Assembly: GCA_910592005.1 (NCBI GenBank)
Contig: CAJVPP010002260.1
Span: 1 to 15,588 of the forward strand
Direction of reading: 5' to 3'
DNA length: 15,588 nt
DNA from: Funneliformis mosseae
Lineage: Eukaryota; Glomeromycota; Glomeromycetes; Glomerales; Glomeraceae
In this document: positions 1 to 15,588 of the stretch, piece after piece
Layout of the letters: every line of letters starts with the position of its first letter
Position numbering within the stretch: the first letter of the stretch is position 1
Notes under the pieces: generated by a model
What the model was told of the DNA's origin: nothing
Databases searched by the model: none
Seen by the model: only the letters and a program-made list of their open reading frames with translations
Made by a program: the position numbers and the translations under genes

Positions 1-230
1 TATCAAATTAAACCTTCTGCTTACCACCCATATACATTGCTTCGCTTATCACTCATAAGCATCTTAAAGAACTGACCATAATACTATTTATTATATTTAT
101 GAAAATTAAACTTTACAGCATTTTTTATTTGACATTATTCTATTTAAAGATTATTACATAGAAATTAATATGATAATTGTGATTAATAATATTCTTTATA
201 TTTTTAATTTATTAAATAAACCTTTAGCAT
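1..230. other. AT-rich non-coding DNA
   Basis: I see no coding signal. A 61-codon open frame beginning near 170 runs into the dispersed repeat copy that starts at about 231 and has the composition of chance translation of T-rich DNA (Leu, Phe, Ile, Ser). Confidence 0.6.
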
Positions 231-634
231 TGTCACTAAGTTCATTTTCATTTATCTTAACGTCTAAGTTGAAAGGCTGCAGCAGCTTATTCTATACTTT
301 GAAATTTCTGACTTTAAAATTTTCTTTAAGTCCTACAGGTATTTGTTATACTTGAATCAATTTAACAATTTATTACGTCTTAGAATTTAAGATATGTTAG
401 TTAAATTCGTAATGATAAACTCAATAGCAAGTTAGTAAGTATAGTTTATTACAACAAATTTTAGATGAAGGACAACATTGAAGAAAAAGTAAATTTGTAT
501 GAATTTAAATTGATTCCTTTATTTAAATTACTGAAACTCACAAAAGAGTTGATTTACAACTTAAGCAAAAAGTTATTCTATTTATATAAAATTAATTTGT
601 TATGACTAACTATTTGTTACACTATAAATTAACT
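231..634. repeat. Unknown dispersed repeat, copy 1 (more AT-decayed)
   Basis: This block aligns end to end with 1661-2099 in direct orientation. The family is not one I recognise, and I see no terminal repeats, poly-A tail or long frame, so its class is open (solo LTR, SINE-like or non-autonomous DNA element are possible). By hand alignment, about 43 transition differences have A/T here and G/C in the other copy, against about 8 in the opposite direction. About seven of ten CpG sites readable in copy 2 are TpG, CpA or otherwise lost here, but most of the changes lie outside CpG. It contains one unit of the 20-bp motif that is triplicated in copy 2. Confidence 0.85.
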
Positions 635-1497
635 ATTTTTGTAAACTTTAACTATAAAATAATAATAAAAGATAATAAAATAAAAATATAATATAGAAGA
701 TAAAATATAATAATGATAAAAACAAAAGAAATAATAAAAATAATAATTATAACAAAAATAATAAATATGTAAAAAGTTTAATAAAATAAACTAATCAAAT
801 AAATCAGGTGAATCAGATGAATTTTACAAATCCTTTAAATTAAATAAATCGACCTAATTTTCTAATACATTATATTGATCAAAGATCTTTCTTAATATGA
901 TCTACATAAAATTAAATCTAATAACTTTGTAAATCAATTTTTAGAGCAAATTTTTAACACTAACAGCGCTTATTACTGATAATAAGTTTGTAATACTAAT
1001 ATGTAGTCAAAATTATCAAAAAAATTTGAGAAGGCTTTAGATAATAATTTTATTTACCCATTATCGTTGCTTAACATATATTCTTAATTTCATATAATAA
1101 AGATTACAAATTCAGTTATATTATGTAATACTTTATGTAAATTATAATTTATAGAAAAATTGAATATTTTTAATCTGAAGTTAATATTAAAATAAGGTAA
1201 AACTTTACCTACTATATGTTTTATAAATTTTAATAAATAGAATTATCATTAAAGATGCTCACAATTAAACATAAAATATGCGAGATTTAATGCTATTCTC
1301 TATAATATAAATAAAGATTAAAGTATAATTTGATATAAATAAGAAAATTTTGTGAGATACAGTATTAAGAAGTGATAGGGATGTCTAAATATTATTTAAT
1401 AAAATTATCATATTTTTTGAGTGAAAAATGAAAGAGATTCAAAAGTGATATTCTTTAAAGAAAGCTAATAAAATAAAACTGAATATCATAAATAATA
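635..1497. other. AT-rich non-coding DNA with A-rich low complexity
   Basis: Positions 655-790 are A-rich low-complexity sequence dominated by AATAATAA and AAAATAA-type units. The remainder is very AT-rich, with stops in all frames and no protein resemblance that I can recognise. No gene is called. Confidence 0.55.
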
Positions 1498-2303: not shown

Positions 2304-2963
2304 ATGATATCATCTAATGTGAGATCATTATTGATTGACAGATCCCACGTGATATTTGGAGTTGCAATTTCTTCTGTTGATAACGTGAATTCCGATAGTA
2401 ATGTAGAACTCATGAATATACTATTGTCAGGTAGAAAGCAAAGTTTGTTTAAGACTACTGAGATCACTAAAGAAATTTCTAACTAGGTAACCAACCCTAA
2501 ATGTGAGAAATGCTTTGAAAATATTATCATAGATCTTCAGAAAAATACTGCCTTTTTATCTTGCAAACATGCTGTGCATTTAGATTGCATTAATGATCTT
2601 TATAAAAGATATCCTACCTGTACTTCAGCTGATGATATAAAAACTAATAATTTGAAAACCTCAGATCCTAGTAGTTTGCAGAAAAAATGTTCTAATGAAT
2701 CAACTGAAAAATCGTCTAGCAAGAAAGCCAAAAAGAGTGGTGAGAAGAAAAGGTCTCAAAAGAATCAAGTATCAGGTACACTAAAAAAACTTATCAAAGA
2801 ATTATCCTCTAAAACATCTCAGAATTCCAAAGTTATGAAAGAGGGAACTTGGGATTTTTTTGATTTGTATAATACAATAATTAATATGAAAGGACAGGAA
2901 GAGATTGTAAAACGAAATGTTATCAAATTGTATTATAATTTCAGTTCACATTCTCTTAAATAA
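2304..2963 (+). pseudogene. Degenerate RING-like zinc-finger protein with Lys/Ser-rich linker
   Basis: One reading frame runs from ATG 2304 to TAA 2961-2963 and is broken by a single TAG at 2484-2486. The context (ISN*VTNPKCEKC) suggests an original Gln codon. After the stop comes a RING-type ligand series: CEKC (2502-2513), then CKHAVHLDC, then a YPTC motif. The Tyr at 2610-2612 sits where the expected CPTC has Cys and is explained by TGT to TAT. A Ser/Lys-rich basic linker follows (about residues 125-165), then a hydrophobic/charged module containing FFDLYNTII. I recall a large expanded Glomeromycotina family with this architecture. RING proteins are usually E3 ubiquitin ligases, but with a lost ligand and a stop this copy is probably inactive. 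It may have continued past 2963 through an intron; I cannot confirm a downstream exon. Confidence 0.75.
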
Positions 2964-3139
2964 AATTTTTAACCGTATATAATAATAAAGTTTGTCCATA
3001 TCAGACTTTTCTCCTTTTTTAATCTCCTAATATTTTTTTAATTAATATATGCTACATGCGAAATGATATATAATTTGTGTATATTTTTACAGAGAACTGA
3101 TCATCTCGTAATTTGTGAAAACTTGTCAGCACCTGAAAC

Positions 3140-3300
3140 TCTCCTAAAACTATCTATGGAATTAGGGAGATCTCATGTAATACGATATATAGTATATCCA
3201 TGCCACAAACTGATTTTAGCCGACGCTGTATATATGCATATAAATATAAAATTAGCATAGCCCCTATATAAATTCCTGATATGCTTATAATCGAATAAAA
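3140..3300 (+). promoter_or_regulatory. Promoter copy A, upstream of P1
   Basis: This stretch aligns with about 4298-4428. Shared blocks include a CTCATGTAATAC / CACATGTGATAC block, ACAAACTGATTTTAGCCGA versus ACAAACTAATTTAGCCGAA, a TATGCATA/TATGTATA block and, just before each ATG, CTGATATGCTT(A/T)TAAT(C/T)GAATAAAA. A TATATAAA box at 3265-3272 lies 36 bp before the ATG at 3301. I infer a duplicated core promoter with a short leader. Confidence 0.6.
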
Positions 3301-4428: not shown

Positions 4429-4453
4429 ATGAACTTGGTTTTATTAAAGTATA

Positions 4454-4475
4454 CAGTCAGAACTTGATATAATGA
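4454..4475 (+). repeat. Left terminal inverted repeat of the MITE
   Basis: 22 bp, 20/22 identical to the inverted right end at 5047-5068. The two mismatches are C/T differences at TIR positions 10 and 12. Confidence 0.85.
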
Positions 4476-5046
4476 TTTGGGATAAACTGATTTTGGCTCA
4501 TACTGATCTTTTTTCTCAAACAAAAACTATATATAATTAATCTTACAACTATATATCGATTTTCTTATAAATTTCGTGATATTATATATACTGATATCAG
4601 ATCATAAACCAGTTATATGTATTTATTCGTGATAAGCTGATACTGATTTTTTTTTCAATATATTGATCATCGTTATAAAGAATTTTTTTATTTTATATAC
4701 CAATTTTTATCGATATTTACCAAATATAGCAAAATAACGAATGTTAACTATAAAATATATTTTTATTGATAACTCATCCCCTTTGATAACTCTTTTATAT
4801 CATTAGCATATTTACAAATAATAAAAATAAGCATGTTACCCTATCTGTATCTCAAAAGCAAAAACTTTGTCAAAAGAAAATTGATAATCTGAATACTTTA
4901 AATATTGAACTTGTTGCTTATTATGTATTGCAAAAAAAATTGATAAACTGAATTATAAAAATTTTATATAGTAAGTTTGATATAATAAGAATATTTGTCT
5001 TATTGAATATTTGATATAATGATACAAAATCATCTGAATGGAGGGT

Positions 5047-5068
5047 TCATTATATCGAATTCTGACTG
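5047..5068 (-). repeat. Right terminal inverted repeat of the MITE
   Basis: It reads TCATTATATCGAATTCTGAC followed by TG on the plus strand and is followed by TATA. It pairs with 4454-4475. Confidence 0.85.
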
Positions 5069-5824
5069 TATACTATTGCTAAATTAGCTAAAATCATTAA
5101 AAAATTATAAAAACGTTATAAATTGTTAAATATATCAGAAACTCATATTAATAGACCTAGGCCTAATAAATTTATTAATATTATTTTAAATGAGGTTTAT
5201 AATAAATCTGTACCTAAACCCATCAAACTTTGTTCTGGATACGATATTGAATATATTAGAAACTGTTATGGTTTCCTTTATCCTGATCAATTTGAAAAAA
5301 TGGTTGAGGTTGAAAAAATATATGATAATTTATCTATTATTAGTTTATATGAACCTCTACAACAATAGGCTATTCGTATAAAAGACGCTTTGCAAGCATT
5401 GATTACTGAAGATCATAAAAGCTATTATCATGTATTCTGCCTTTGCAGATCATCTGGGCAAGGAGAAACCATGATATACTATGATAATTACAAAGGGAGA
5501 GAAGTTGCCATTGGTTATTACAGACCTAATATTCATAATTGCAAGATAACTATTTGTTTTGATTGTTGAAAATTAGTAGAATCACTAATGTAAAATCAAA
5601 AAAAAACATATTTCAGTGGATGGCAGAGATATGAGTATGAGATTAAGCCTGAAGACTTGATAAAACATTGGGATAACTTATGTTTCAAGACTAATAAACA
5701 TATATAAGCCTATTTTCTTGTAAGATCAAAGTCAAAAATATTACGTGAAAAATCTTTTGACCGGAAGGGAATATTATATTTTAAAAAATTACACCTGATT
5801 TCCTCTCACAGTTTGATAGAATAA

Positions 5825-6142
5825 GTGAGAGTGAAATATTTGTCTCATTTATATACACAAAATAAAATAATTTAAACCATCTCAATCATCCAAAAGGTAC
5901 TATGTTTAGATTGAAAGATAAGACAAAAGTCACGATTGTTTAACTGGTTTAATTGAATGATTTCAAAAAATTTTTAATTATAGACTATTGCTTTCAACTG
6001 AAATATAATTTATTTTTGCATTATATAATCTGAATGATTACCTGTGAAATGTATTACCTGCAGACGCTATGCATGATCTGTTTATTTTGGGATTCTCCAA
6101 TATATTATATAACTATTTTAGTGAAGTATTTCAGAAAAATCA
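5825..6142. other. Spacer between P2 and P3
   Basis: The first 150 bp could be a further-decayed tail of P2. From about 6000 it is non-coding and contains a motif block at 6046-6102 that recurs at 6805-6873. Confidence 0.45.
6046..6102 (+). repeat. Short repeat block, copy 1, upstream of P3
   Basis: The sequence TGAAATGTATTACCTGCAGA followed by a TATGCATGATCTGTTTATTT-like segment recurs at 6805-6873 with changes and an insertion. One copy lies about 100 bp before the P3 ATG, the other about 280 bp before the SAM gene ATG, so it may be a duplicated upstream element. Confidence 0.5.
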
Positions 6143-6736
6143 ATGAAGTGATCTTGGGAATTCTTGATTACAAGACAATATAACTATCAATTTGAGAATT
6201 TCTATGCGATAGTTATCTAGTAAGCTTATAGAAATTACAAGAAAAGACCTGAATATTTGGCAAAACGAATTTGAGAAACAGTGAGAAATGATGGTACTCC
6301 TGATGATATGAAGTTTTTAAGTATAAAAAATAAATTAAAACAATCAGGATATATTTGTTATGAGGATGAAGGATATTGTTATCCAGTAAGAAATGACTAG
6401 ATGTATGAGAAGAGAGTCCAATTATGATAATGATTATCTTTTATAACATACATACTTGTTAAGAAATTATTATATCAGCAAGACTATATAGTTGTTAGAA
6501 ATACATATTAGCTTAACATGTTAAAATGGCTACAGAATCCTGGATATTATAATATTCATAAAAAGTATAATTTTGTATACTTCATTAGAATTTCAGAATA
6601 TAAGATATATAAGATTAAATTATCAGAAATGAAATTTATATGTGATTCACTGTTAAAATACATATATCATATTTATAGAAAGGATATTACTGTAAATTTC
6701 ACAAACTTAGATGATAATTGTGAGTTTGTGAGCTAA
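6143..6736 (+). pseudogene. P3: unrecognised protein remnant
   Basis: The family is not recognised. The frame of ATG 6143 is readable to TAA 6734-6736, with about nine in-frame stops, most of which could be former Gln, Trp or Arg codons. Readable segments include a basic Tyr-rich stretch (YRNYKKRPEYLAKRI), an acidic patch (NDGTPDDMK), a segment with YICYEDEGYCYPV, and a final intact run of 72 codons from 6518 rich in Tyr, Ile and Lys. There is no obvious catalytic motif, signal peptide or membrane segment. The composition resembles P1 and P2, and all three are co-oriented and similarly decayed, so they may belong to one larger element or one locally expanded host cluster. Confidence 0.4.
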
Positions 6737-6804
6737 ATTTTCCAGATCAGACCTTAACCCAGATCTAAATATTATATTAATAAAATAATATATTGTCTAT
6801 CTAA

Positions 6805-6873
6805 TGAAATGTATCACCTGCAGATTTATGTAGAATAAAGATTATGATCTGCCTATTCTAGATTAGCTCCTAA
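6805..6873 (+). repeat. Short repeat block, copy 2, upstream of the SAM gene
   Basis: TGAAATGTATCACCTGCAGA and TATGATCTGCCTATTCTAGA segments correspond to the block at 6046-6102, with an insertion of about 12 bp between the two conserved parts. Confidence 0.5.
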
Positions 6874-6994
6874 ATAACATAATACTAATTATACTAAAAT
6901 AGTAATATACTAATTTAGTGATACCTCCATTATTACAAAATATAAGTATACGTATTTCTTGCTAAAAACAAATTCTAGTGCGTCTCTTCTTATT

Positions 6995-7004
6995 TATAAA
7001 AAGG
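6995..7004 (+). promoter_or_regulatory. Candidate TATA box of the SAM-domain gene
   Basis: TATAAAAAGG lies about 80 bp before ATG 7082. A second TATAAATTATAAA run follows at about 7006. Base composition makes such matches common, so this is weak. Confidence 0.3.
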
Positions 7005-7081
7005 CTATAAATTATAAAGGGTAAGTTCAATATATGTATTTTTTATTATTTGGATTCTTTACTTCTAATAACTAATAAATC

Positions 7082-9174
7082 ATGTCTACTTCTACAATTT
7101 CTTTAAACTGCTTCACTTTGGTCAAAAACTGGGATACTGAGACTCTCATTATTTTTTTACGTGACCTAAACATAAATCTTAATGAGGATGATTTTAAGAT
7201 CCTTTGTAAGCAGAAAATTGATGATCAGACCTTTTCAGACATGACCAAAAAAAAGTTCATGAAGGATGGTATAAAGCGAGAATCTGCTATGAAGCTTGAA
7301 AAACAAGCTAAAATATTAAAAGAGAAAACAAGAGCTCTCAAAAAAGGAAAAATCAAATATATTTGGCTTTTTCCGTGTGAAGTATAGTCTCTTCAGCATT
7401 TCATATTCTGGTCAACTAATATGTTTGAATCTACCAAAAAAAATGAAGTATATACGATATTTTATAATACATTATATATTTTCTGTGATGATCCAATGGC
7501 TTCGTAAGAGATCCTTGAAGTTGTTAGAAATCTTTTACTTAATAAAAAGGTATGTATTTTCCATTCCACAAGTCCAAACATGCATTTTTTAGATATGAGT
7601 ATGTTAAGCATAAAAAGCTTTTGTTTAAACCCTCAGTTATTGCAGTACTTTAGTATATTTATTCTATTAAATGCTGTGAGATTATTTAGTGATATTTTTT
7701 GACAAAAGTCTACTGTTTCTGAAAGAGGATTCAGTTATGTACCTTCCTTTTGATAAAAGTATACTGAATAATATTCTGTGTTTTAAGCATATTATATGAT
7801 TGTTACTTCTGATATCATCATTTTAAAAATATTTATTTTTTATTTCATTATCCTCCAATGATGATACTTATTACTGAGGGAGTTTGATTTATCTATTTTT
7901 ATATAGGTCAATAGAAAAAAAGGTCATAAACCTTTAGCTGATACTTTTAACTTACAAAAAGAGATAGTAAAGAAGCTAGCCCCTCCAAAATTAGATTCAT
8001 TAGTTTCTTCTACTCCTATTTCTAAAAAATGAAGTATTAGCAAAGTTTTAGATATTTCTGCAGATATTTTATTATGGAGTTAAAGACTACAGTACATGAC
8101 TTTGACCAAGGTATAATATCACTAAATTCCTTCCGCTCATACAAAAATTCTAATTATTTGTATGTAAATTCTAAGCTTTATATCAAAGTTCTAAGAGAAA
8201 GTACATATAATGCTGAAATGTATCAGGTTTTAGTGAATTGGTTAAGAAAAATCCATAGATATGAGATCACTGATCAGTGGTATCTCAAACAAGTTTATAA
8301 TAACAGGGACTACCATCATCTTTATTGTGATCTAACTATAAAAAATCCTAATAGTCCTCATCTGAAAGCTCTTCTCAAACTATTGGCGACAGCATCAATT
8401 CCTAAACTAAATAACCATTTTGAGTAAGTGTTTAAGTATAAAAAGCAACTTTATCCTTGAGAGATCTGGATTATACTTCTCTCATAAAGATTATATTGTA
8501 ACTAATCCATACTGACCAAGTGAAAAGCTCCAGAAGAGGGAGTTAAATGTCATCCATTTTGACATGATAGGGAGTTTAAAAATGTGAGAATAAGTACTAG
8601 ATTTTGCGATATCACTAGAAAGTTCTGTAAAATTATAAATAAGCCTATTCTTTAGCTTTAACGCCTAGTTCAACCATAGATATACTATTATTTATATTTT
8701 AATAAAACTGATCCTAATGATCTATTTTCTTTTGAAATTCTATGAAATTTCATATTTTTTTGCAGAATATATAAATATATAATAGTGTTTAACTAGATAT
8801 ATTCTGACTTGTTAGTAAAATTACCAGCTTTCTTAATAAATGAAGTATAGATACATTTCACATCACAGAAGTATAACCCATTATCTGAAAAAGAGGCTAG
8901 TGAAATTAGAGTTATTTTTAAAACATGAAGCTATTAGATATCAGAAAAGATTAATGCGTCAGAGATAGGTGAAAAAGGTCCATCATAATCCAGTTAAAGT
9001 CCCAAAATCTGCAAGTCCTGACACGTTAATGGACTAACTTTATCTTATCAAAGTCCCGTGATTTATTTGGGACTGATATTAAGACTGAGTCTTTTCTTAA
9101 AAATTAAAACATTTAATTATTGTGTAGATTGTCAAAAAGTTTGTGTAACATATTATATATGTAAATTGCAATAA
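7082..9174 (+). pseudogene. SAM-domain protein with C-terminal PD-(D/E)XK-like nuclease domain, broken
   Basis: ATG 7082 opens a SAM (sterile alpha motif) domain at residues about 16-75 (WDTETLIIFLRDL, then NEDDFKIL, then DGIKRESAMKL). This is close to the SAM version I recall as hugely expanded in Rhizophagus and Gigaspora. The frame passes a TAG (7385) and a TAA (7505), both fitting Gln, to a good splice donor AAG|GTATGT at 7549/7550. The matching acceptor ATATAG ends at 7906. Exon 2 continues in phase with a Lys-rich linker, a TGA at 8030 and a one-base loss at about 8074. A 117-codon open run follows with CDLTIKNPN (Asp codon at 8329) and KALLKLLATAS, matching the D...E(x)LLA layout of a PD-(D/E)XK nuclease, but with Lys where Glu is expected. 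Two more frameshifts lie near 8475-8560; the frame can then be followed to TAA 9172. SAM gives protein-protein contacts; the nuclease role is inferred. Confidence 0.65.
7550..7906 (+). other. Predicted intron in the SAM-domain pseudogene
   Basis: Starts GTATGT after AATAAAAAG and ends TTTATATAG. Removing it joins codons in phase (the first exon is exactly 156 codons). It has stops in all frames. The length of 357 bp is long for fungi, so an insertion inside it or an extra exon is possible. Confidence 0.55.
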
Positions 9175-9274: not shown

Positions 9275-10062
9275 TCAAATTAATACTTTGCTACATAGAT
9301 ATTTATATATTATATTATTATTTTTCTCTCCTACTCCTCTTTTAAGCCAGCTTTTTGAATATAATAATGCGTGAGACGTCTCTGAATACAATCTATTTCT
9401 AGTATGGGTTATAGTATTACTTGCAACAGAAAATGCCTGTTCGCATGCAACACTGGTAGCCTGGATGGATAAATGGTCTCGTGCCATTATCCCTAATACT
9501 GAAAACTCATGAAAATGAGCCTGCCACTATAACAAAGGTTCAATATTGTCATCACATGGCAAGGTAAGATATCGATCAAACTCTTCATAAATTCCAGATG
9601 TTTTTTCAGTTGTTGAAGTAGTACTAACAATATTATTTGTATTTTCTAATCACCTCTTCTTTAATTGATAAAAATATTCCTGAATACTTATTTTTTACTA
9701 TTGTTATGATTAATTACGAATGATATTTGAGGTTGTGGTATATGATATTGAGTAAAATAACTTTTTATTATATTAATCACATTTGTTGATTCTTCTTCTG
9801 TAACAAATAAAGTAAGTTTTGTATGCAGATCTAATACTGTAGCTACTAAGGTAAATGAGTTTACTATTTTCCAATATTAATTGATTTTTTGAAGTATTGA
9901 TAATGCTAACTCATTTTGACTAAATTCTAATTTTCCAATATAATCATTTAGATGTTGTTGAATTCCAAGAAATAAAAATCTAACATCAGAAATAGTAGGA
10001 TAAGAAGAGGCTGAAAGCAAAACTGTTACTTTTTCTAATGGTTCAAGTAAAGTAAGAATATC

Positions 10063-10136
10063 CTATTTATTTTATAAAATATGTTAATTTTTTTTTTTAA
10101 AAAAAAAAATAAAAAAAATTATACAAATTTACTTAC
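10063..10136 (-). other. Predicted intron in the hAT pseudogene
   Basis: Minus-strand donor GTAAGT at 10136-10131 and acceptor AAATAG ending at 10063. The 74-bp interval contains long T and A tracts (10087-10121). Its removal joins codons ending WIKIN to DILTLLEPLE in phase. Confidence 0.65.
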
Positions 10137-10366
10137 ATTTATTTTTATCCATTCTTGCATATCTGATATCAAATTTTTAATATTCTAATCTGTTGCAACT
10201 AACATTTCAATAAGACGTAACATTTTTTGAAATTTTATAATCATATAGTAAGTACTATTCCATCTGGTTTTAATATCTAGTTGTGGTTTATAATATTGTA
10301 AATTTTCTATTAAACATAATTCTCGTAATCTATCACACTTTTGAGGTGAATTTTTAATTTTTTTCA

Positions 10367-10474
10367 TTAGTTCACAGATTTTAATAATCTCATCATCAAT
10401 AATTTCGATTCCTTATTGTATTAGTTCATAGATTTTAATAATCTCATTATTAATAATTTTGATTCCTTATTGTG
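10367..10474 (-). repeat. 54-bp in-frame tandem duplication inside the hAT gene
   Basis: Units 10367-10420 and 10421-10474 are direct repeats, 18 codons each, located just after the RCSAHILNLAAQ motif. Each encodes a variant of GI(K/E)IIxxEIIKIxEL and each contains the same in-frame TAA next to a Gln codon. The 5'-proximal unit (10421-10474) is more AT-shifted than the other. Confidence 0.85.
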
Positions 10475-11119
10475 CTGCTAAATTCAAAATATGTGCAGAA
10501 CATCTGTAATGTCAAAAAGATTGATTATCAAACTCAACTGCAAGTTCTTTTGCTATAGTTTTTCTACAAACTAACATTGCTGATTCATTATTAATAGTTA
10601 AAACTAAAGTTTTTTCAAGAATATTAAATTCTGCTAAAACAGATTTTATTGTATTTGCTATATTAATACCAGTATGACGAATGGTAAAAGAAACAATATC
10701 TAATAAAAAGTGTTGTAACTTCCAATTATGATCAACGTAGTAAATTGTTAAGCCAAGATATGCATTATTGTTGAATGTTAAGGTCCATATATCTGCCGTT
10801 AATGACAGTTTACCTGGAATTGTATTTAAATTATGTTGTATATTATTACGTTTTTCTCCAAAATAATCTATTACTAAATTTTTAATAGTTGTCTTATTTG
10901 GAACTTGATATTGAGAATCAAAAGTATTAACTATTTTTATAAATCGAGGATGTTCAACTGATCGAAAAGGCTGTACATCACCAATTATCCACTCTATTAC
11001 TACAATATCACGTTCTTTTTTTTCTTTATTAGGCCAAGGATCAGTTCGCTTGAAATTCAAAATGCTTTGATTGTTTTCAATATTTTTAACATTATCTATT
11101 TTTATTTTATATACAGATA

Positions 11120-11215
11120 ATAAGTGTCATTTTAGGATTGAAATACTAGTGTCTTTTCCAAAAACACTTTGATATTTACAACAAACTGGACGTCCTGAAT
11201 GTTGAGATGTTTGGT
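11120..11215 (-). other. Decayed BED-type zinc finger of the hAT transposase
   Basis: The minus-strand translation contains GRPVCCKYQSVFGKD and, after a TGA, HLLSVYK. BED fingers use C-x2-C and H-x(3-5)-H. Here the second Cys and the last His positions are both Tyr, each one transition away from the ligand codon. The finger would normally bind transposon end DNA. Confidence 0.6.
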
Positions 11216-11480: not shown

Positions 11481-12096
11481 AATGATGGCTTAAACTATAA
11501 ATTTTGTATTATTAAACAGTTAACAATTGTGTTGACTTCAAAAAAAACCAAGTTCAAAAGTTAAAAAAAGAGTATTTAATAAAAGAAGTGGTTTGGCAAA
11601 TTTTGCATTTCATGAGCAAAGAACTTTTTGAAAAAAAAATGAGATAAAGGAAAACTAAAACGCGTCATGATTAAAAGAATTTTAATTTAAAGCAAAAAAT
11701 AATTAATACGACATTTCCTAATTCATTTTCTATTAATTTCCAAATATTGAATTAATTGACTTTTTTTCAAATATTATAACATTATTTAACATTTATTTTT
11801 TTTCAACATTTTATATCAAATAGATCATATAACCATGTATAGGTTGTACAACATAAGATTGTGTTCACAAAAATAACCTGAAATATTGCTAAATTAATAT
11901 AAGACCGATTTGAAATCATTCTAATTAAGTTCTAAAGATAGGAACTCAGTCCTATTAAGATTGAATTCTAAGACTCGGTCCTAGAGTCCAGGACTTAAAT
12001 TTTATTCCACTCTAGTCAGAGATAAACTCAAAGTTGGCCAAAGTGTCAGACATCTTTATCTTTCAAAAAAATATCAACTATATACGTTACAAATAA
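11481..12096. other. Non-coding region between hAT and the Polinton-like cluster
   Basis: Mostly A/T tracts with no coding signal. Positions 11928-12000 are richer in G/C and contain overlapping direct and inverted AGTCC/GGACT words (for example GGAACTCAGTCC, GACTCGGTCCTAGAGTCC, AGTCCAGGACT), which could be the subterminal part of the hAT element's 5' end. I could not pair it with a 3' partner. Confidence 0.4.
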
Positions 12097-12355
12097 TGGA
12101 TCCCAAACTGATAATATCACTTGTAATCATGAAGAAGAGAATAATCGTCAGATTATGAATAAGTTTAAAGTGTTTCGCTAGCATCTACTTGATTATAATA
12201 AAAGAATTTTTGAAAAATTTATGCAAGATATAGAAAGGAAATATAGAGAGCGGATTAGTGCGAATAAGAAATTGCAATGTAAAAATGAGGATCTGAAGAT
12301 GCAACTACAGGAGGTAAAAAAAAAGTTGGCATTTATGAAATTAGATTTCCATTAA
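12097..12355 (+). pseudogene. Coiled-coil protein remnant converging on the ATPase
   Basis: The family is not recognised. The main frame is readable from about 12092 to TAA 12353-12355 with one stop (TAG at about 12179, fitting Gln). The likely ATG at 12097 is one base out of that frame, so an early frameshift is assumed. The product would be short, starting acidic (NHEEENN) and followed by a charged heptad-like helix (FEKFMQDIERKYRERI, then NEDLKMQLQEVKKKL), typical of a coiled coil. It is tail-to-tail with the minus-strand ATPase and overlaps its end by about 20 bp. A small helical structural or regulatory protein of the same element is plausible; it is not assignable by sequence. Confidence 0.5.
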
Positions 12356-13104
12356 GAAGTGGTATATTCCAGTCAATATGTATCCTGTGTGGATGCTCTC
12401 AAAATACAATTAGATCGAAAATAATGAATTTTTGCTCACATAATGTCTTATCAATAATCTTAATCACATTATGCCAGTCATTAGCATATTGACGCATAAT
12501 TCTGACTAGTTCATTTATAATGCAGGACCTATTAAATAGGTAGACATGTGTGAGATTTTTTCATATTATCTTTAGGTAATCAAAGTAATTTTAGGATACA
12601 TATATTGAACTGACATTGTAATAGCATTTCTTAACAAAATAAGGGATGATCTTCTCCTGCACTTTTTCAGGTTAACATATACATTTTAAATATGAGTACT
12701 ATAGCCCTATTTGGAGAAAATGAATCTACTTTAGGGATTTTATCAGGCTTCAAAGCTCAGAATGTAATATTTTTACGATAGGATTTTAGACTTTTTGTAA
12801 TTATCTGACATGCTGATTTGAGGTACATATATTTTAGCTTCTTAAGATTGTGGCTAATTAATAGCAAATCATTATTCTTGATATAACGCGTCTTTTCTTT
12901 CTTTCTATTAAATATTCGATAAAGCTTATTTCCAAGAATGAGATTGAAAACCTCATTAGTCTTTCCTGAATTAGTACGATCACAGATTAGTAAAGTGAAA
13001 GGTCACTGGAGAATACTCAAATGTCTATTATATTTTTTGGCATTCTTAATCTCATTAATATGGTATATAAGCTTATCAACTGGCTTGAGTTTTTTTATTT
13101 TCAT
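12333..13104 (-). pseudogene. A32-like (FtsK/HerA) packaging ATPase, Polinton or large-DNA-virus type, broken
   Basis: ATG at 13104 (minus) opens a frame with a Walker A-like motif CDRTNSGKT at about residue 42 (12985-12957), preceded by PFTLLI. The first Gly of the P-loop is Asp here. It continues through [22 protein letters not shown] and an FSPNRAIVL segment before the expected Walker B, whose acidic end is replaced by Lys (IFKMY). After a one-base shift near 12660-12700 it reads KIIPYFV, SSIYVS*NYFDYLKII and INELVRIMRQYANDW, and ends IDWNIPLL...TAA at 12333. The order P-loop, Walker B, then a SIYVSQ(N/S)YF-type sensor motif is that of A32/Polinton packaging ATPases, which pump genomes into capsids. 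The length of about 257 codons fits. Stops are TAA or TGA at probable Gln, Trp or Arg sites. I recognised this by motifs, without a database search. Confidence 0.72.
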
Positions 13105-13141
13105 GATAAGCTAACTATTAATAATGATATATTAAAAAATA

Positions 13142-13698
13142 TCAGACTGATTTATCAGTTCTCCCTTTTAATTCCTTTACTTTATTCAAAAATCCTTTCT
13201 TGATTAGTGTATGTCTAATGAATAGATATAAATCTGCAGTATAAGATACTTTGATAAGACATATACCTTAATCTTTGTATATATCTTGCTTCTTCTGATC
13301 ATGCATATTTTGTGATTTTAGATTTTCATTCTCCTGATGGTAGAAGCTATTGTGGTGATAGTGTTAAGAATCCTGAAATTTGAATGCAAGACACAATTTC
13401 TCATTATATCTATCTAAGTATAACCTGTCTAAGAACTTAACCTTATATGGCGAGAATTTCTTGCCTAACAAATCCTCAAAAATATATCAGTATTTACACT
13501 CTTGAGTATGATGGCATAGAGGACACTAATCGAATTTTTTATGATATATTTTAGTGGATACTCCTACTGATGCGTACTATTCTTACAAGACTAAAGATAT
13601 ACATCATGACCATTTATTCGTCTAATCTTTCCTAGACATTGGCTACTACGTCTTCTGGCATAATCAATAGCTTGATCTATCTTTCTATTAGTAATATA
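13142..13698 (-). pseudogene. Zinc-ribbon plus VSR-like PD-(D/E)XK endonuclease, broken
   Basis: Minus-strand reading gives [11 protein letters not shown], then VYL*SCKN.THQ*EYPLKYI and, in the next frame, D*CPLC. Together these form a repeat-type zinc ribbon (W-x-C...H-x-W...WCPxC) in which three Trp codons are now TAG. A linker FEDLLGKKF and a nuclease core follow: [20 protein letters not shown], then QDS*HYHHNSFYH, HDQKKQDIY and a final SYTADLYLFIRHTL, with a stop at 13142. I recall this architecture (zinc ribbons plus a VSR-like LELDGY...AFEYQG.QHY nuclease) from large DNA viruses and mycorrhizal fungi. The conserved Glu is Lys and two Gly are Arg and Asp here. The start is unresolved; readable sequence overlaps the integrase 3' end. 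It lies between integrase and ATPase on the same strand. Confidence 0.65.
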
Positions 13699-14758
13699 AG
13701 TAACATGTACAGATAATATACTTTGGGTAGATATACAACTTTTTCTGAGTCAATTATTAACATGAGTTCTTCTTGCACAAACTCACGTGATAGAGCATAT
13801 TCACTATCAAGATAATATAAAACTGGCTCATTCTTTATAATAACAACTTTTTGGATTTTATGAAGACTTAGATTAAATGTAGAGTCAGTTGCATGCTTTT
13901 GATTTTCTATTCCACCCTCCCATTCTGTATTAGCAAGAAAATAGCAGACGGTATCTCCTTTCTTTAATCTTATTTCATCTTTCCAACTGGACACTTATAT
14001 TTTGTAAATGATCTAGATTCTACTCATTCTAATGCAATGACTTTCACTAGTTCAAATCTTCACTTTTCTGATCCCAATTCTCGAATAAGATGCGTGAAAT
14101 AATTATTTAGGTAATCAATAACTACTGGTATATATCTAACCTATATTCTTATTAATTTTGAATCAGAAGATATCAATTCAACAGCATACTGAATCTTATA
14201 TAGAATTTTTGAGAGTGTTTAATTAAAACGCTCTACAAATGCAACTCTTCTGTAACTATATGGGTTGACCACTCAAATTGTAACATCATGCTCTTAATTA
14301 GTCAAGAGGTTTTGCCCATAAATTCACGACTTCTGTCACATTGTAAAAGCTTTGGTCAGATCAATAGATTATTTCAAGTACTATATATCTTCCTAAATGC
14401 TTTAGTAACTTCTGAGCTATTCTTTGATGTGAGCAGAACTGAATACTGCTTTGTATTTTTTACCTTTATAGTGATTATGAGTGAGAAACAATATATTATA
14501 CTGGTATACACAATTAGGATGTGTTATTCATCTGTAGCTGACTCTAGAAATGTATTTTGAAGAAGTTTTATTGATTTGGTATAACTTTTGATTTTCTAAA
14601 AAAGTTTTGCATTCACTTATACAGAATTAATGTCCCACTTTTTTACACGTGTCACTTGCCTTAAGTACTTTCAGCAATGATTTAGAATTAGAATAATACC
14701 CAATAGACAGTAATATATATCACGCAATATTATATTTTTTCAATTCTCTGTATCTCAT
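13677..14758 (-). pseudogene. Retroviral-type DDE integrase, Polinton/Maverick-like, broken
   Basis: From ATG 14758 (minus) the frame runs through an HHCC-like N-terminal region (SDTCKK, CISECKTFLE), then PNCVYQYNILFLTH. Here an Asn stands where the first catalytic Asp is usually found (QxDLLFL). After a shift it reads LTSKNSSEVTKAFRKIY, then LLQCDRSREFMG (second catalytic Asp kept), shifts again to VVNPYSYRRVAFVERFN (third catalytic Glu kept in VERFN), then VIDYLNNYFTHLIREL. One more shift leads into a 105-codon C-terminal open run with LKKGDTVCYFLANTEWEGG and PVLYYLD...FVQEEL, which resembles the SH3/chromo-like tail of these integrases. About ten stops and at least three frameshifts are present. 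The length of about 360 codons fits Polinton-type integrases; Ty3-like integrase is the alternative. A GTG at 13994 is not a real start, because homology continues upstream. Confidence 0.8.
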
Positions 14759-14890
14759 TAGAATCTATCACAATTTGCGGTTGGCTTATTCTCAAGGTGG
14801 AATTATTATGATGGTACTATAAATTAGGATAAAATACCATATTTGATTTAGCATATTTACAACTTTTAAATATAAATCAGGAGTTTCATA
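14759..14890. promoter_or_regulatory. Divergent intergenic region between integrase and coiled-coil gene
   Basis: 132 bp between two opposed ATGs. TATAAATT at about 14817 and TATAAATC at about 14871 are the only core-promoter-like words. A shared bidirectional promoter is an inference from layout. Confidence 0.35.
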
Positions 14891-15514
14891 ATGAGTTTTG
14901 AGATGAGATTTCTATTAATAAGAGTTATGAGAAAAAAATTTGATCCCTTGTAAAGGAGCTTTAGCAATATTATCAAACTATTTCATTACAGGATAATATT
15001 ATCATAGTCCACAAGAAAGTGAGAGAAATTTAAATCAGAAATATCTGATTTGCAAAAATAGCTTAGGATTTTACAACAAGATAAAAAATTCAAAGATGAG
15101 GTTAGGTCTATTCAAGATGGTTGAATTATAGAGTTTGAAAATAAGGTTGAGCATTTTAAGGTAAGAATCTGGATTCTCATAAATAAAAAAATTCTAATAG
15201 ATAATTTAGATATGGCAACAGTTGATCTTATTGGGAAAATTAATAGAGGATTAAATCAGATTAAGGATCACATTGAAGGCATTAGTACATCTATGCAAAA
15301 TCCCACTAATGTATTAGATAGTATTAGAGACTCATTAAATACTATTTGGATTACTTTGTAAAATATTACAACTGAGCGTGATTAATATCAGAAAATATTA
15401 AATGATGAGAATAAACAGATGCAGGATCTTAAGAATCAGTTAGGAGATAGTAGAAATTAGAATTTACGCTTGTAATGCTTGTTAGATGAATCATAAATTT
15501 AGGCTTAAAGAATT
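14891..15514 (+). pseudogene. Long coiled-coil protein remnant, truncated by a terminal-repeat element
   Basis: The family is not recognised. ATG 14891 is followed by frame changes within the first 170 bp. From about 15010 one frame is readable to 15514. Stops fall after SDLQK, IQDG, TIWITL, TTERD, GDSRN, NLRL and DES, nearly all in contexts where Gln or Trp reads well. Readable segments (KSEISDLQK, LRILQQDKKFKDEV, IGKINRGLNQIKDHIEG, YQKILNDENKQMQDLKNQLG) form charged amphipathic heptads, so a long coiled coil is likely. There is no signal peptide or membrane segment. It is divergently arranged with the integrase and ends abruptly where a CAGTCA terminal repeat begins. It could be a virion or tail-like structural protein of the element or a host gene; undecided. 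Confidence 0.5.
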
Positions 15515-15515
15515 A

Positions 15516-15588
15516 CAGTCAACTCTTTCTACAACGAATTTTGATATAACGAATTTTACAATACAACGGATTTTCAGTGTCGGACAGA
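15516..15588. mobile_element. Left end of a further CAGTCA-type element, running off the window
   Basis: After TA (15514-15515) the sequence begins CAGTCAACTCTTTCTACAAC and contains repeated AACGAATTTT and GATATAACGA words, the layout of pogo/Tigger-type termini. The start resembles those at 1498 and 4454 (CAGTCA). The right end is outside the window. Confidence 0.55.

What the first reader, a model, noticed from the sequence alone, without database searches (positions are those of the whole stretch)
12097..15514. Partial Maverick/Polinton-like element: integrase, nuclease and packaging ATPase in one cluster
Seen: minus-strand frames carry integrase signatures (QCDRSREFMG, VVNPYSYRR...VERFN) and, about 0.6 kb downstream on the same strand, a P-loop protein (CDRTNSGKT) with a SIYVS*NYF sensor region. 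Known: a retroviral-type integrase together with an A32-like FtsK/HerA ATPase is diagnostic of Polintons/Mavericks; the ATPase alone also occurs in nucleocytoplasmic large DNA viruses. Inferred: this is a decayed Polinton or a hybrid virus-like element in a fungal genome, with the polymerase, protease and capsid genes lying beyond 15.6 kb, lost, or displaced by the hAT insertion.
Basis: partly seen in the sequence, partly recalled or inferred. Interest (0 to 1): 0.75.

Follow-up and report, generated by a model that had tools for sequence, protein, structure and literature searches.

The report
Gag-carrying Polinton-like element in mycorrhizal fungus
This is a decayed piece of a fungal virus-like jumping element whose relatives pair an integrase and a DNA-packing motor, as Polintons do, with a retrovirus-type shell protein and protease, a pairing that may explain a capsid gene reported missing from such elements in this kind of fungus.

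Summary
Window 12351-14789 (-) carries a broken integrase, nuclease-like domain and A32-type ATPase (tblastn E 1.9e-166 and 3.5e-90). The window is a whole contig of an 82-Mb AT-rich genome, probably a Rhizophagus-like fungus (inferred), so it cannot be extended. The cassette recurs many times in the genome. In relatives, a Gag gene (capsid-type fold, CCHC knuckle, retropepsin-like end) lies beside the integrase on the opposite strand (17 of 19 copies, 17 of 17 opposite). Of 76 Gag loci scored, 43 lie within 8 kb of an A32 ATPase (1.9 expected); none lies within 10 kb of the 150 scored reverse transcriptases. The window keeps only the probable 5' part of its Gag gene, cut at 15515 by another repeat about 0.4 kb before the capsid domain. 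PolB is almost absent (2 matches in the genome). All ten ORFs tested show purifying selection. So this is a hybrid: INT-nuclease-A32 joined to Gag-retropepsin, without a polymerase of its own that I could find. Element ends, terminal repeats and particles are not shown; the capsid role of Gag is inferred.

The parts
13537..14789 (-). integrase (rve) part of the integrase-nuclease gene, frames broken
   Evidence: tblastn with P0214, E 1.9e-166 over the whole gene; relative L039:4335-5453 matches PF00665 over the cut-off, 33.1 vs 32.6 bits
13187..13552 (-). treble-clef plus nuclease-like C-terminal part of the same gene, frames broken
   Evidence: tblastn with P0214 residues 421-543; weak Pfam hits in relatives only: DUF4379 treble clef 0.0098 and DUF2726 0.009, both under cut-off; the nuclease label is a motif-based inference
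12351..13104 (-). A32-type P-loop ATPase, frames broken
   Evidence: tblastn with P0005, E 3.5e-90; P0005 itself matches Pox_A32 at 29.2 bits, cut-off 22.8
14857..15515 (+). probable 5' coiled-coil part of the Gag gene, cut off before the capsid domain
   Evidence: 80% DNA identity to L030, L034 and others, 82% to L024; in L025 and L030 the aligned stretch matches the N-terminal part of Gag P0122 (E 7.6e-5, 2.1e-5) and the capsid domain starts 370-397 bp further on in L025, L030, L042. Against: no Gag protein matches the window itself at E <= 0.01
12026..12346 (+). C-terminal part of a conserved coiled-coil protein (CC) of the element
   Evidence: tblastn with L039:6730-7338, E 2e-39; purifying selection among copies
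6060..6796 (.). stretch homologous to the left side of other copies
   Evidence: 79-83% to L030 and L033; 16 of 73 match rows end at the same place (query 1253-1261, near window 6070), which could be an element end or the end of a separate repeat
9275..11126 (-). hAT transposase remains, inserted within the element
   Evidence: PF05699 1.4e-14 for 9275-9526; L038 is continuous where the window has about 2.6 kb more
15516..15588 (-). start of another short repeat that cuts the Gag gene at the contig end
   Evidence: 15514-15557 matches L024 583-539, L033 8323-8279, L042 2978-2934, parts of a repeat of about 178 bp in those loci

Best explanation
The window holds a decayed copy of a virus-like DNA element family of arbuscular mycorrhizal fungi. 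One transcription unit encodes integrase, nuclease-like domain and A32-type packaging ATPase; beside it, on the opposite strand in the main subfamily, lies Gag with a CCHC knuckle and a retropepsin-like protease. Likely working: host enzymes copy the element DNA, Gag assembles a shell, the retropepsin trims it, the ATPase helps to load or move the double-stranded DNA, and the integrase (perhaps with the nuclease) inserts it again. Shown: the gene content, the linkage, the orientations, past purifying selection, the Gag and A32 relationships. Inferred: that Gag forms a particle, that the ATPase loads DNA into it, that replication is by the host.
Confidence: 0.6

Rival explanations
1. The element is a Polinton-type DNA transposon that has given up particles; Gag was captured from a retroelement and now serves as a DNA- or RNA-binding helper (nucleocapsid-like chaperone or regulator), not as a shell, and the A32 ATPase works in transposition.
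For: Gag has a CCHC knuckle and a charged tail; the A32-ATPase and capsid genes are known to be lost together or not at all in some Polintons (passage of PMC4028283), so an ATPase without jelly-roll capsid is unusual and needs another partner; no particle known.
Against: The capsid-type domain and the protease are conserved with the rest and were under purifying selection; a mere nucleic-acid chaperone would not need the protease.
Confidence: 0.25
2. Gag-protease belongs to a separate retroelement family that inserts next to, or travelled as a passenger of, the INT-ATPase element.
For: 33 of 76 Gag loci show no ATPase within 8 kb in the scored list; Gag and retropepsin are retroelement proteins.
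Against: 34 of 43 linked pairs share one layout and the other 9 have two further layouts at 3.3-3.9 kb; no reverse transcriptase nearby (0 of 76); no direct repeat of 60 bp or more in the three copies tested; homology between copies runs through both halves.
Confidence: 0.1
3. An ordinary, decayed Polinton whose PolB, jelly-roll capsid and adenain protease are merely lost or beyond the contig.
For: Integrase and A32 ATPase are typical Polinton genes; Polintons with no detectable capsid gene are reported from Glomus intraradices (passage of PMC7805220).
Against: PolB has 2 matches in the whole genome, on contigs with no ATPase match, against 120 ATPase loci; other copies carry Gag-protease next to the integrase; no match to the adenain family (but its controls were silent, so weak).
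Confidence: 0.05

Closest known systems
Polintons / Mavericks (Polintoviruses)
   Same: RVE integrase and A32-type packaging ATPase; many copies; at least about 12.6 kb of shared sequence when overlapping copies are laid end to end
   Different: Gag and retropepsin-like protease in place of jelly-roll capsids and adenain protease; almost no PolB in the genome; terminal repeats not determined
Capsid-less 'Polintons' reported from Glomus intraradices (Rhizophagus irregularis)
   Same: Same kind of fungus, same open point: a 2021 paper says no capsid gene had yet been found in them (passage, PMC7805220)
   Different: Those are defined by PolB and integrase; whether the family here is the same element could not be tested
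Gypsy/Ty3-type LTR retrotransposons
   Same: Gag with CCHC, retropepsin-like protease, RVE integrase
   Different: No reverse transcriptase nearby, Gag on the other strand, integrase splits from eight other rve loci of the genome at 100/100 in a tree, A32 ATPase present
Nucleocytoplasmic large DNA viruses
   Same: A32-type ATPase
   Different: No other NCLDV gene seen in the copies; a paper on R. irregularis found no A32 marker in five strains (passage, PMC10640383)

Membership tests
Polinton/Maverick | retroviral-type (RVE) integrase | tested here: met
   PF00665 over cut-off in L039, P0214 and P0225
[quoted passage not shown]
   PF03175: 2 matches in the genome (C2643, C2982), neither on a contig with an ATPase match. 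Unseen outer parts of the element are covered only by this genome-wide search
Polinton/Maverick | A32-type packaging ATPase | tested here: met
   Pox_A32 in 48 of 49 relatives; fold model uninformative
Polinton/Maverick | double jelly-roll major capsid protein | tested here: inconclusive
   None listed among 90 and 87 ORF pieces (one search lists 25 of 118 families), but no Polinton capsid model was used
Polinton/Maverick | adenain-type cysteine protease | tested here: inconclusive
   PF00770: 0 matches, but no control genome rang either
Polinton/Maverick | long terminal inverted repeats and 6-bp target duplications | tested here: inconclusive
LTR retrotransposon | reverse transcriptase | tested here: not met
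   0 of 76 Gag loci within 10 kb of the 150 scored RVT_1 places; 709 candidates existed
LTR retrotransposon | Gag and integrase in one collinear unit | tested here: not met
   opposite strands in 17 of 17 copies
LTR retrotransposon | long terminal direct repeats | tested here: inconclusive
   no direct repeat of 60 bp or more in 3 of 19 copies tested, which may be incomplete
retroviral-type Gag | capsid fold and CCHC knuckle | tested here: met
retropepsin | D-S/T-G-A active site and beta fold | tested here: met
   D[ST]GA in 14 of 92 Gag relatives, many of which stop before the protease; DDI1 retropepsin tops Foldseek at E 0.018; Asp_protease at 0.01 in 2 of 62

The most novel reading that the evidence does not exclude
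A lineage of mobile DNA elements that packages double-stranded DNA with an A32 motor into a shell made of retroviral-type Gag matured by a retropepsin: a DNA virus-like element with a Gag capsid, in which the jelly-roll capsid module of Polintons was exchanged for a retroelement one.
Probability: 0.4. Interest if true: 0.92.

Novelty: new variant of a known kind. Interest (0 to 1): 0.8.

Why it matters
A 2021 paper states that no capsid gene had been found in the Polintons of Glomus intraradices and cites the idea that such elements lost it for a transposon life (passage of PMC7805220). The family described here suggests another answer that can be tested: the capsid and protease slots are filled by Gag and a retropepsin. 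If Gag forms the shell, capsid exchange has crossed between the jelly-roll DNA virus world and the retroelement world, and arbuscular mycorrhizal fungi, important plant symbionts, carry many copies of such elements. It also gives names to genes listed as hypothetical in those genomes.

Tried and rejected

Literature: searches (open-access library only) showed no listing of a Gag-bearing Polinton or of Gag joined to an A32 ATPase; I saw listings, and passages of six papers (PMC8647823, PMC11075540, PMC7805220, PMC4409740, PMC10640383, PMC4028283). No paper was read whole.

Full report
1. Where it lies. The window is the whole of contig C2260 (15,588 bases) of an 82-Mb, 4,154-contig genome, with 17-32% GC in the profile windows.

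2. The observation. With intact public relatives as queries, tblastn gives one integrase-nuclease gene at 13187-14789 (-) (E 1.9e-166) and one ATPase gene at 12351-13104 (-) (E 3.5e-90), both broken by stops and frame changes. Shuffled windows gave nothing better than 0.042 in 20 trials.

3. A repeat family. As DNA, window 12600-15120 matches 44 places in the genome; among full-length or near full-length ones identity is 73-78%. The ATPase protein gives 149 scored matches (of 268 candidates), which merge to 120 loci on 115 contigs. Twenty stretches were fetched; L026 continues L025, so they show 19 copies. Homology between copies goes on well beyond the window's part: L030 419-9991 and L025 1-3011, laid end to end, make about 12.6 kb.

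4. Gene content. In L039 the order is: X3 (+), protease and Gag (-), integrase, nuclease, ATPase (+), then coiled-coil CC, X1 and X2 (-). The integrase passes Pfam's rve cut-off. The ATPase of L039 lies just under the Pox_A32 cut-off (22.7 vs 22.8 bits), but its relatives pass: 48 of 49 match Pox_A32 at 0.01, P0005 with 29.2 bits, and only 1 of 49 any other family. The GRH..IS.IY.SQ block that follows the Walker motifs is found in 97 of 120 ATPase relatives by a loose pattern; that it resembles the A32 signature is recalled, not tested. The nuclease label rests on a treble-clef hit and a DUF2726 hit, both under cut-off, and on recalled motif likeness.

6. Linkage. With three Gag or Gag-protease queries, 17 of 19 copies have Gag matter, always opposite in strand to the integrase; L037 starts at the contig end and L043 shows none (the L035 hit is weak, 6e-5). 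Genome-wide, two Gag types give 76 loci; 43 have an ATPase within 8 kb (34 divergent, 5 same strand, 4 convergent), 33 have none in the scored list; 1.9 would be expected by chance. With the first Gag type alone it is 28 of 48, all 28 divergent. The nine other layouts keep a spacing of 3.3-3.9 kb, so the pairing has survived rearrangement. No Gag locus has one of the 150 scored reverse transcriptases within 10 kb, against 60 of 130 rve loci; but 709 RVT candidates existed. Of 130 rve places 9 lie within 10 kb of an ATPase locus. Independent assemblies agree: neighbouring locus tags for Gag and integrase (three pairs) and for integrase and ATPase (one pair), with equal contig lengths. A JGI contig length of 35,741 is shared by an ATPase (P0106) and a Gag (P0160), which suggests one contig but does not prove it.

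7. Selection. Median dN/dS against L039 over copies: INT 0.28, nuclease 0.16, ATPase 0.23, Gag core 0.48, Gag N part 0.24, protease 0.24, CC 0.18, X1 0.24, X2 0.14, X3 0.28, with 3 to 19 copies each. A second calculation from DNA alignments gave 0.14-0.44 in the true frame and 0.52-1.88 in the shifted frames. Many dS values exceed 1, so the ratios are rough; the youngest pair (L038 with L039) has 0.58 and 0.68 for INT and ATPase, as expected of decay after insertion. The window copy is old: dS 0.71 for INT and 0.62 for ATPase.

8. What is missing. PolB: 2 matches in the genome, neither on an ATPase contig. Adenain: none, with silent controls. No reverse transcriptase, PolB or capsid family was listed in 90 and 87 ORF pieces of the copies, though one search lists 25 of 118 families. 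Ends: the right side runs past the fetched stretch; on the left, 16 of 73 match rows end at one place near window 6070, which may be the end or another repeat.

9. The window's own Gag. Window 14857-15515 (+) aligns at about 80% to the stretch that in L025 and L030 matches the coiled-coil start of Gag. In L025, L030 and L042 the capsid domain begins 370-397 bp after the equivalent of 15515. At 15516 another short repeat begins and the contig ends soon after. No Gag protein matches the window directly at 0.01.

10. Mechanism and rank. The parts fit a cycle of integrase-mediated insertion, host copying, Gag shell, retropepsin trimming and A32-driven DNA movement. Only the parts, their linkage and their past selection are shown. 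A helper role of Gag without particles remains the main rival. In print, the passage in PMC7805220 says no capsid gene was yet known for Polintons of Glomus intraradices; PMC8647823 lists Maverick among recently expanded elements of R. irregularis (passage). My searches listed no description of Gag in such elements. I rate it a new variant of a known kind, with a bolder reading kept in the section on the most novel reading.

Noticed in passing
window 9275-11126: Decayed hAT transposase (Dimer_Tnp_hAT 1.4e-14) with a 54-bp tandem duplication at 10366-10473.
   Followed up: partly
window 4448-5074: Short inverted repeat pair (28 nt, 93%) 571 bp apart, looks like a small DNA transposon.
   Followed up: no
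window 229-958 and 1669-2253: Two diverged direct copies about 1.43 kb apart; L036 holds a further copy at 2455-3190.
   Followed up: no
window 6800-8727: Stretch shared with L038 only (78%) among the copies fetched; ORFs at 7079-7387 and 8041-8427 match no Pfam family.
   Followed up: partly
P0309-P0332: About 330-aa integrases, 43-48% identical to the fungal one, in clusters of up to 1018 member sequences and on contigs up to 1.9 Mb, from unnamed sources; the element they belong to is unknown.
   Followed up: partly
P0265, P0301, P0304, P0305, P0307, P0320, P0322: Predicted proteins of Entrophospora and Gigaspora that join this integrase to leucine-rich repeats: gene-prediction merges or real fusions.
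   Followed up: no
L027:3264-4349: A 362-aa protein with zinc-ribbon-like pieces and a C-terminal part related to the element's nuclease (31% identity), beside a copy.
   Followed up: no
G000 C2643:8998-9636, C2982:4769-5044: The only two PolB2 matches of the genome; they may be ordinary Polinton remains.
   Followed up: no
C56:4000-4350: A repeat of about 351 bp, 87-92% identical in 27 other places, that cuts a copy; it looks like a solo LTR.
   Followed up: no
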